NCBI RefSeq assembly: GCF_014697615.1
Contig: NZ_JACJSD010000009.1
Location: 62,001 to 126,000 of the forward strand
Length of the DNA stretch: 64,000 nucleotides
Reading direction: 5' to 3'
From: Nostoc sp. FACHB-280
GTDB lineage: Bacteria; Cyanobacteriota; Cyanobacteriia; Cyanobacteriales; Nostocaceae
Shown in pieces: positions 62,613 to 64,000 of this stretch. The position numbers and the translations under genes were made by a program. Under the pieces are notes generated by a model that was given only the letters and a program-made list of their open reading frames with translations, did not search any database and was not told the origin of the DNA. The first letter of the stretch is position 1, and every line of letters begins with the position of its first letter.

Positions 62613-62779
62613 ACTCTCACAAATTACCTTGTAGGAATCATAGCGTAATTGTTTGCGATCGCTCTCCAATTAAGTGATCGCAACATCAACAGACCAAAAG
62701 TATTCATTCAAAAAGTACTTTCTCATCAAGCAAATTCACAGTCAGAAGTTCACTTTCTAAATTTCAGGAGTTAAAAATC

Positions 62780-63160
62780 GTGGAACCAATTACACTTATT
62801 CTCACTGCTTTAGCTGCTGGGGCTACTGCTGCTGCTAAAGATACAGCAGGAACAGCCGTGAAGGATGCCTATGAAGGTTTAAAGACGTTGATTAAGAATC
62901 AGTTTGCAGGTGATCCCTTTGCACAAGGAATGGTCGATGCAAAACCAGAAGAAATTCAGGAAATAGAACGTTTTTTAAAAGACAAAATTATCAAAGCTGG
63001 TGTTGATAAAAATGATGACGTTTTAAAAAAAGCAGAGGAAATTAGGGAAATCATGAAAAAAGAAAATCCTGAAGGAGGTTCAACTGGTAAATATGAAGTT
63101 AATGTACAAGGCAGTAGGCAATTTCAAGTTGGGGATAACAACGTACAACACAATGCCTAA
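62780..63160 (+). CDS. Bell-like cell-death domain protein with C-terminal amyloid (RHIM-like) motif
   Basis: The start is a GTG with AGGAG nine bases upstream. The 126-residue protein begins MEPITLILTALAAGATAAAKDTAGTAVKDAYEGLKTLI, matching the N-terminal helix of bacterial Bell domains, analogues of fungal HeLo/HELL and the MLKL four-helix bundle. The helical region runs to about 95. After a Gly/Ser linker comes VQGSRQFQVGDNNVQHN (109-125), an amyloid-type signalling motif of the RHIM-like Q-x-G form. The next gene carries the same motif at its N-terminus. Predicted role: membrane-damaging executioner triggered by amyloid templating. Identification is by recalled family pattern. Confidence 0.65.
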   Translation: MEPITLILTALAAGATAAAKDTAGTAVKDAYEGLKTLIKNQFAGDPFAQGMVDAKPEEIQEIERFLKDKIIKAGVDKNDDVLKKAEEIREIMKKENPEGGSTGKYEVNVQGSRQFQVGDNNVQHNA

Positions 63161-63511
63161 AGTTAATATCAATTAATATTTAATATCTGTGAGTAAGGTG
63201 TGAACTTTGACTTCAATTAATCAAGCAATCTTCTTATACTTTTGATGGTCGCTTGAAAAGCACCTATGTTGTGGGAATAACCTTAAACTTTGTAATTTTC
63301 CGTAGGTGTGGTGCTGAAATTTTATTTAAAGGCCAGAAATTGGCTTGTACATCAACACTTACAGACATTTACCGCCTTAATTTTAAAACTAAGGCTCAAA
63401 CGTTAATACTAACGACTGTTGTTATTGTCTAGTAAAAGTTTCAACCTTATTCACAGATTTATCCATTATATTCAGTGATAAAAAGGCAAATTTAGAAGAG
63501 CCACTTACCCT
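63161..63511. other. Intergenic region between Bell-like and STAND genes
   Basis: 351 bases, AT-rich, holding only a weak GGCCAGAAATTGGCT hairpin near 63332. It may contain the STAND promoter. The two genes are in the same orientation but not tightly coupled. Confidence 0.4.
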
Positions 63512-64000
63512 ATGAACACTTCTAATATTGGTCAAACAAATAGTATACAAGTCACGCAATCAACGGCATTTCAAGTAGGTGATAACAATAGACAAACAAA
63601 CATATTTTATGGTGATGATCCGGAAGAAGAGAAAGTATCTGACACTATCGATGAAAATTCTCCCTATCTAGGGTTAGAGTCATTTACTGCTAATGATTCT
63701 AATCGATTTTATGGTAGAAAAAAGCTCATCATTGAGTTATTAGAACACTTAGAAAATAATAATTTAATTTTCCTATTGGGGGCATCAGGTAGTGGTAAAT
63801 CTTCCTTAGTAAAAGCAGGAATTATTCCTAAATTTTCTCAGAAAACCAAACTATTTGCTGAACTTAGTTTTGTTCCTGGCGATGATCCATTTGACGCTTT
63901 TTTTGATGAATTACAAACATCCGTTCCTAAACAATTAAAATTTTATAATAAATCTGAAATCAAAAAAATTATTAAAACGGTTGACAACCTCAAATTAAAT
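63512..64000 (+). CDS. nSTAND1-type NTPase with N-terminal amyloid motif (3' end outside window)
   Basis: The frame is open from the ATG at 63512 to the right edge (163 codons), so the gene continues outside. Residues 12-30 (IQVTQSTAFQVGDNNRQTN) carry the amyloid-type motif shared with the Bell-like protein. SPYLGLESF and FYGR (about 50-69) mark the start of an nSTAND1 P-loop domain, with Walker A GASGSGKSS (90-98). Full-length relatives end in WD40 or TPR sensor repeats. Predicted role: an NLR-like sensor that oligomerises on a trigger and nucleates amyloid in the Bell protein. Confidence 0.7.
   Translation, partial: MNTSNIGQTNSIQVTQSTAFQVGDNNRQTNIFYGDDPEEEKVSDTIDENSPYLGLESFTANDSNRFYGRKKLIIELLEHLENNNLIFLLGASGSGKSSLVKAGIIPKFSQKTKLFAELSFVPGDDPFDAFFDELQTSVPKQLKFYNKSEIKKIIKTVDNLKLN

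What the first reader, a model, noticed from the sequence alone, without database searches (positions are those of the whole stretch)
62780..64000. Amyloid-signalling immune pair: Bell-like executioner and nSTAND NTPase sharing the FQVGDNN motif
The 126-residue protein ends VQGSRQFQVGDNNVQHN and the next gene's product begins with VTQSTAFQVGDNNRQTN. Sharing FQVGDNNxQxN at the C-terminus of a membrane-active-type helical protein and the N-terminus of an NLR-like ATPase is the layout of bacterial amyloid-signalling (BASS/RHIM-like) cell-death systems. Members are known in cyanobacteria; this exact pair and its trigger are probably uncharacterised.
Basis: partly seen in the sequence, partly recalled or inferred. 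Interest (0 to 1): 0.8.

Follow-up and report, generated by a model that had tools for sequence, protein, structure and literature searches.

The report
Cyanobacterial amyloid-tag immune gene pair
Two neighbouring cyanobacterial genes, a large sensor protein and a small helical protein that probably kills the cell, carry the same short sticky tag, which very likely passes an alarm from one to the other; this is a new example of a wiring scheme already described in bacteria and fungi.

Summary
A 126-aa helical protein (62780-63160) ends in FQVGDNNVQHN. The next gene, followed past the window edge, encodes a 1188-aa protein: FQVGDNNRQTN tag, nSTAND1 NTPase, WD40 repeats. The tag pattern occurs nowhere else in the 7.6-Mb assembly. 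Relatives of the small protein occur in 48 of 291 genomes sampled from the order, own included. Their bodies are alike, but the tails fall into several motif classes, and 38 of 40 adjacent NLRs carry a matching N-terminal motif: mean score 69.5 against 31.3 for mismatched pairs, 0 of 10,000 permutations, no signal from the protein body. The tag resembles the Frankia BASS3 peptide, reported to aggregate. The 'Bell/MLKL-like' label is not proven: fold searches are inconclusive; the nearest curated family, HetE-N, is matched by relatives but not by this protein; the strict RHIM core and Pfam's RHIM model are not met. Amyloid formation, cell death and trigger are untested. Verdict: new member of a known kind.

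The parts
62766..62770 (+). AGGAG ribosome-binding site, 9 nt before the GTG start
   Evidence: sequence read; supports the GTG start
62780..63160 (+). effector gene, 126 aa
   Evidence: relatives in 48 of 291 order genomes, own included, and 5 named genome-contig loci
62780..63064 (+). effector body, residues 1-95, six predicted helices
   Evidence: AlphaFold2 model, block pLDDT 76-91 over residues 1-90; conserved in alignment A1
63098..63154 (+). C-terminal tag VNVQGSRQFQVGDNNVQHN
   Evidence: pLDDT under 50 in the lone monomer
63185..63458 (.). MITE-like stretch between the two genes: 28-nt terminal inverted repeats, 82% complementary
   Evidence: no second full copy in the genome;'s measure 28 of 40 pairs have a gap of 25 nt or less, against 325 nt here
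63512..64000 (+). NLR gene, first 163 aa; continues to L003:11078, 1188 aa in all
63545..63601 (+). N-terminal tag IQVTQSTAFQVGDNNRQTN
63662..64000 (+). start of nSTAND1 NTPase domain (protein residues 51-448), followed outside the window by WD40 repeats
   Evidence: PF20703 330.2 bits against a cut-off of 27.1; WD40 356 bits

Best explanation
The pair is a STAND/NLR signalling device of the bacterial amyloid-signalling (BASS3, RHIM-like) kind. At rest the NLR is monomeric and the effector's tag is disordered. When the WD40 region senses a trigger, probably phage or another intruder, the NTPase oligomerises and brings many N-terminal FQVGDNN tags together. These nucleate a cross-beta template onto which the effector's C-terminal tags add, clustering the helical bodies. 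The clustered bodies then act, most likely by damaging the cell membrane and killing or arresting the cell. Shown here: gene layout, domains, shared tag, and tag matching across related pairs. Inferred: oligomerisation, templating, membrane attack, immune role, trigger.
For: Tag at both ends, not found elsewhere in the assembly. Full-length nSTAND1-WD40 partner. Over 40 pairs, cognate tail and N-terminus score 69.5 against 31.3, 0 of 10,000 permutations, body control 8768 of 10,000; 38 of 40 score 48 or more, against 19 of 1098 other adjacent ORF pairs. Non-redundant set of 28 pairs: 63.5 against 30.8, 0 of 10,000. NLRs matching at E <= 1e-100 were found in 3 of 291 genomes, own included, and in all 3 the effector is adjacent; the window partners match each other (51) better than across these pairs (21-38). 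Seven effectors without an nSTAND1 neighbour have a neighbouring ORF with a matching tag; Pfam calls NACHT in the three of these that I scanned. A published Frankia BASS3 peptide of the same pattern aggregates. A Streptomyces plasmid fragment carries both a related body end and the tag, though at 29.9% identity and E 1e-3.
Against: No experiment. The tag departs from the strict G-(I,V)-Q-(I,V)-G RHIM core (Q-F-Q-V-G and A-F-Q-V-G), and Pfam's RHIM model does not match either window protein at E <= 1. The BASS3 HMM and Bell profile could not be run. Helix 1 is only moderately hydrophobic (1.56). Some relatives have no matching partner in the stretch fetched (for example L070, L072, L075, L087). 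Cognates rank first in only 17 of 40, top three in 24 of 40, because members of one class match each other. The sister pairs' IQQGDNN tag shares letters with the window tag, so the two may be variants rather than different classes. A 351-nt gap with a MITE-like insert may uncouple expression.
Confidence: 0.8

Rival explanations
1. The tags mediate homotypic recruitment without amyloid, like the effector-associated domains (EADs): a defined small complex brings the effector to the NLR.
For: Kaur et al. describe such adaptors, with copies in adjacent genes more alike than others (PMC7159879 passages). The tail gives a weak EAD10 match, E 0.21, 12.1 bits against a cut-off of 24.1; 3 of 32 family members match EAD10 at E <= 0.5, best 0.015.
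Against: The EAD10 matches are below cut-off; the tag is about 20 residues, disordered in the monomer model, and its pattern is that of BASS3, for which prion-like foci and aggregation were reported.
Confidence: 0.12
2. The small protein is not an executioner but an adaptor or inhibitor of the NLR; the damage is done by another protein or by the NTPase itself.
For: No family above its cut-off in Pfam or NCBIfam, and no PADLOC match, for the small protein; membrane activity is only suggested by helix 1.
Against: In the 40 pairs it is the gene beside the NLR; relatives match HetE-N, the Het-E N-terminal domain of Pfam; Kaur et al. name an uncharacterised effector domain shared with fungal HetE N-termini (PMC8195603 passage), which I take to be the same.
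Confidence: 0.15
3. The shared heptapeptide is chance or low-complexity similarity.
For: Asn/Gln-rich short motif; 1 of 20,000 shuffles reached the score.
Against: Not found elsewhere in the assembly, and family-wide matching, 0 of 10,000 permutations.
Confidence: 0.01

Closest known systems
BASS3 two-gene amyloid signalosomes (Dyrka et al. 2020, not held; known through passages of PMC7889193, PMC8086366, PMC7885112 and PMC9815663, and one section of PMC8086366)
   Same: adjacent NLR and small helical effector; shared RHIM-like motif at effector C-terminus and NLR N-terminus; two-gene clusters reported mainly in actinobacteria and cyanobacteria
   Different: core begins RQF/TAF instead of KGV; the NLR-side tag is effector-like, unlike the VGxxN(I/V)(I/V)(Y/S)N form of the other 11 RHIM-like pairs here; the NLR's close relatives (E <= 1e-100) are in 3 of 291 genomes, own included
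Podospora PNT1/HELLP and Chaetomium PP-motif systems
   Same: NLR plus executioner with a shared RHIM-related motif (PMC7889193 and PMC7885112 passages)
   Different: fungal; HELLP has a HeLo-like domain with homology to the MLKL four-helix bundle, not shown here; PNT1 has NB-ARC and TPR instead of nSTAND1 and WD40
HetE-N domain (PF20701)
   Same: 15 of 32 family members match at E <= 0.5, best 4.1e-13, 49.9 bits over the cut-off of 25; profile comparison of the window group with the group of that best member: 98.8% probability
   Different: the window protein itself does not match; of 20 relatives scanned singly one is over the cut-off; in HetE the domain is at the N-terminus of the receptor, here it is a separate gene

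Membership tests
BASS-type NLR amyloid signalosome | effector and NLR encoded by adjacent genes | tested here: met
   same strand, 351 nt apart; 40 such pairs in the family
BASS-type NLR amyloid signalosome | similar motif at effector C-terminus and NLR N-terminus | tested here: met
   FQVGDNNxQxN in both; permutation test 0 of 10,000
BASS-type NLR amyloid signalosome | motif matches the BASS3 profile HMM | not testable with these tools
   profile not available; by eye QVGDxNVQxN is shared with the Frankia BASS3 peptide
BASS-type NLR amyloid signalosome | motif forms self-propagating amyloid and cross-seeds | not testable with these tools
   needs bench work
RHIM | strict core G-(I,V)-Q-(I,V)-G (PMC7885112 passage) | tested here: not met
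   window has Q-F-Q-V-G and A-F-Q-V-G; relatives such as L055 have G-I-Q-V-G. Works like RHIM/BASS3; not filed as a canonical RHIM
RHIM | Pfam RHIM model (PF12721) | tested here: not met
   not listed for either window protein at E <= 1; relative L005 reaches 12.3 bits, E 0.13, cut-off 20
Bell domain | match to Bell profile | not testable with these tools
   profile not available; defining paper not held
Bell domain | small alpha-helical bundle with hydrophobic transmembrane helix | tested here: inconclusive
   six helices predicted from only 6 sequences; helix 1 Kyte-Doolittle 1.56
MLKL/HeLo four-helix bundle | fold match to solved structures | tested here: inconclusive
HetE-N (PF20701) | Pfam gathering score reached by the window protein | tested here: not met
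   no match at E <= 0.5; the own-genome search found none either, but its controls were silent too
nSTAND1 STAND NTPase | PF20703 above cut-off with P-loop | tested here: met
   330.2 bits, residues 51-448, GASGSGKS

The most novel reading that the evidence does not exclude
The short tag works as an exchangeable address. One helical body carries at least five different kinds of tag, and both partners change tag together; the window's pair has an RHIM-like tag where its nearest NLR relatives have an IQQG-type tag. The same RHIM-like tag also sits near the C-terminus of transcription regulators, among them repressor-like proteins of viral contigs (Mu-like by eye) and a Kitasatospora regulator two genes from an NLR-like gene, so amyloid alarms in bacteria may reach gene expression and be tapped by mobile elements.
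Probability: 0.15. Interest if true: 0.7.

Novelty: new member of a known kind. Interest (0 to 1): 0.4.

Why it matters
It adds a clean cyanobacterial case in which tag, sensor and effector are all intact, and a set of related pairs in which bodies stay alike while tags differ. That set allows a direct test of whether the tag alone sets signalling specificity: swap tags between pairs and ask which NLR activates which effector. In the passages I saw, the outcome of such bacterial signalling was still to be explored (PMC7889193).

Tried and rejected
Chance similarity: rejected. Recent duplication of the tag DNA: 24 of 33 bases identical, four silent differences, rejected. Structured RNA in the 351-nt gap: fold z-score -3.64, but no Rfam match at E <= 1, and the inverted repeats explain it better. 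Other NLRs in the genome sharing the tag: of 20 nSTAND1 matches, 12 were read (L113-L124, one of them the window gene), at most about 220 residues before a P-loop; none of the other 11 shows the tag. Effector relatives in phages and viral contigs: none found. Fold: no significant match, so no fold claim; MLKL and HeLo were not among the listed matches, which excludes nothing; MCL-1 and a FADD death domain appear at E 2.2-9.1, not significant. WD40 repeats as near-identical tandem DNA: none found. Promoter and terminator scan: no more than shuffles. Dyrka 2020 not held. PADLOC: for the NLR only a HEAT-ARM_XIII match, best stretch in the WD40 region. HetE-N in the own genome: nothing, but nothing rang in the controls either.

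Rows dropped: of the matches listed, three places were not fetched (G098:C242, G049:C215, G237:C90); the pair test used 66 loci. In one search, 3 of 43 pairs were left out (effector fragments with under 60 aligned residues). The 27 effector matches without an nSTAND1 neighbour were kept apart and inspected, except L064 and a fragment of L094. Background pairs used the first 90 residues of a stop-bounded frame, not the region before an NTPase, so the comparison is rough; its high rows were not examined, and at least one involves an NLR frame. The class counts rest on patterns of my own.

Full report
Observation. The window holds a 126-residue reading frame at 62780-63160 (GTG start with AGGAG nine bases before it) and the first 163 residues of a second gene from 63512. 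FQVGDNN occurs at residues 115-121 of the first and 20-26 of the second protein. The window is contig C103:62001-126000 of a 7.64-Mb assembly in 113 contigs. Reading on, the second gene encodes 1188 residues without interruption: nSTAND1 at 51-448 with 330.2 bits against a cut-off of 27.1, then WD40 repeats. The DNA pattern for Q-[V/I/M]-G-D-N-N has two matches in the assembly, both here; the reversed control has none.

Family. The effector has relatives at E <= 0.001 in 48 of 291 genomes drawn from its order, own included. A scan of named genomes gave five loci, among them Crocosphaera, Nostoc and Calothrix. Plasmids gave seven records, six cyanobacterial and one Streptomyces; six of the seven are predicted conjugative. 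In the alignment of 32 members the first 95 residues are alike while the tails differ. My own pattern sorting of 40 pairs gave 12 RHIM-like, 10 GDxSGGxINQ, 9 AATSGxGN, 4 TVGGN, 2 IQQG and 3 other.

Tag matching. An effector was paired with a same-strand frame that matches the window's NTPase and starts within 1.5 kb. For 40 pairs, the last 50 effector residues were aligned with the region before the NTPase. Cognate pairs average 69.5, all others 31.3; none of 10,000 permutations reached the observed mean, while the effector body against the same NLR regions gave no signal (8768 of 10,000). With near-duplicates removed, 28 pairs gave 63.5 against 30.8, again 0 of 10,000. Cognates ranked first in 17 of 40 and in the top three in 24 of 40, because members of one class match each other. 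As a rough background, 19 of 1098 other adjacent ORF pairs scored 48 or more, against 38 of 40 here; the two below are L051 (44) and L061 (16). Effector matches without such a neighbour numbered 27. Seven of these have a neighbouring ORF that begins with a matching tag (L079, L080, L081, L084, L085, L089, L091, scores 46-86); the three of them that I scanned are NACHT proteins. Others, such as L070, L072, L075 and L087, have an RHIM-like tail and no matching neighbour in the stretch fetched.

The window pair in this family. NLRs matching the window's NLR (first 453 residues) at E <= 1e-100 were found in 3 of 291 genomes, own included (five candidates scored in each genome listed); in all three the effector is the neighbour. 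The other two carry an EKQVIQQGDNN-type tag on the NLR and a similar one on the effector. The window effector scores 51 with its own NLR and 35 and 33 with the other two; their effectors score 21 and 38 with the window NLR but 56-75 within their own group. So both partners differ together, though the shared QGDNN letters leave open that these are variants of one class. The window NLR tag (FQVGDNNRQTNIF) looks like an effector tag; in the other 11 RHIM-like pairs the NLR side reads VGxxN(I/V)(I/V)(Y/S)N or close to it.

What the tag is. A table in PMC8086366 (section 13 read) gives the Frankia BASS3 effector peptide, which shares QVGDxNVQxN with the window and whose aggregation was reported there from infrared spectra and Congo red. 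PMC9815663 (passages) reports foci from a Streptomyces atratus BASS3 motif in Podospora. PMC7885112 (passages) gives the RHIM core as G-(I,V)-Q-(I,V)-G; the window tags have Q-F-Q-V-G and A-F-Q-V-G, so two positions depart, and Pfam's RHIM model lists neither protein at E <= 1. The BASS3 HMM was not available. A Streptomyces plasmid fragment ending AKGVQVGDHNVQHNTFS, matched at E 1e-3 and 29.9% identity over residues 49-125, links the cyanobacterial and actinobacterial forms.

What the body is. AlphaFold2 on six sequences gives six helices in residues 3-95 and a disordered tail, mean pLDDT 74. Searches against solved structures gave nothing significant; a sequence-profile search listed five chains, best E 0.015, DnaA. 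Pfam finds HetE-N at E <= 0.5 in 15 of 32 members, best 4.1e-13 for L099, not in the window protein. The window protein and L099 align at 26% identity, E 8e-5, and their groups at 98.8% probability (tails were included). Kaur et al. [quoted passage not shown] that this is PF20701 is my inference. Whether HetE-N and Bell are the same thing I could not test. PMC7889193 (passages) states that Bell has no directly detectable sequence homology to HeLo and that its killing role is a hypothesis, while PMC9815663 (passages) calls Bell a homologue of HeLo.

Neighbourhood. Between the genes lies a 274-bp stretch with 28-nt inverted repeats at its ends, without a second full copy, which I read as an old MITE-like insertion. 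By one search's measure (to the stop-bounded start of the NLR frame) 28 of 40 pairs have a gap of 25 nt or less; here it is 325, and five related loci have 461-467. Upstream are a LuxR-type regulator and a 386-aa protein without a family above cut-off; downstream, by eye, a fumarase/aspartase-like enzyme and a Uma2-like gene. I saw no other defence-like gene there, but did not scan for them.

Conclusion. This is a new, intact member of the bacterial amyloid-signalling two-gene kind, with the wiring well supported and the killing step, amyloid state and trigger open.

Noticed in passing
L105:3861-4379, L106:2200-2658, L107:2101-2577, L109:2572-3036, L110:8845-9309 (all minus), L112:734-1198 (plus): Six of eight viral contigs found with the tag pattern carry it near the C-terminus of small HTH regulators (L106, L109 and L112 are nearly identical; Pfam HTH_3 in the two of the six scanned). 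In L106 the gene lies beside genes that look Mu-like by eye. No relative of the tail in the phages collection. An RHIM-like tag on a repressor-like protein is unexpected.
   Followed up: partly
L144:4464-5072: A Kitasatospora plasmid HTH_31 regulator ends EVDLREAKGVQVGDNNTQHNTF, close to the Frankia BASS3 peptide (found at E 3 with a 28-residue query); a TPR protein with a P-loop, NLR-like by eye, and a small protein that looks Bell-like by eye lie upstream.
   Followed up: partly
L108:13420-14118: A seventh viral-contig protein with the tag pattern matches winged-helix regulator families (MarR_2 best); the eighth, in L111, is only a 43-residue frame.
   Followed up: no
window 63185-63458: MITE-like stretch with 28-nt inverted repeats between the two genes, no second full copy in the genome.
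   Followed up: partly
L044:7928-8926: An effector body continuing in frame into a WD40-like stretch with no NTPase between them.
   Followed up: no
L083, L074, L077, L094: Effector copies broken into two reading frames in 4 of 66 loci; decay or assembly error, not resolved.
   Followed up: no
L103:6001-7000: On a conjugative Tolypothrix plasmid the effector is intact but the adjacent NLR-like reading frame is short and ends in stops, with a transposase gene annotated just beyond.
   Followed up: no
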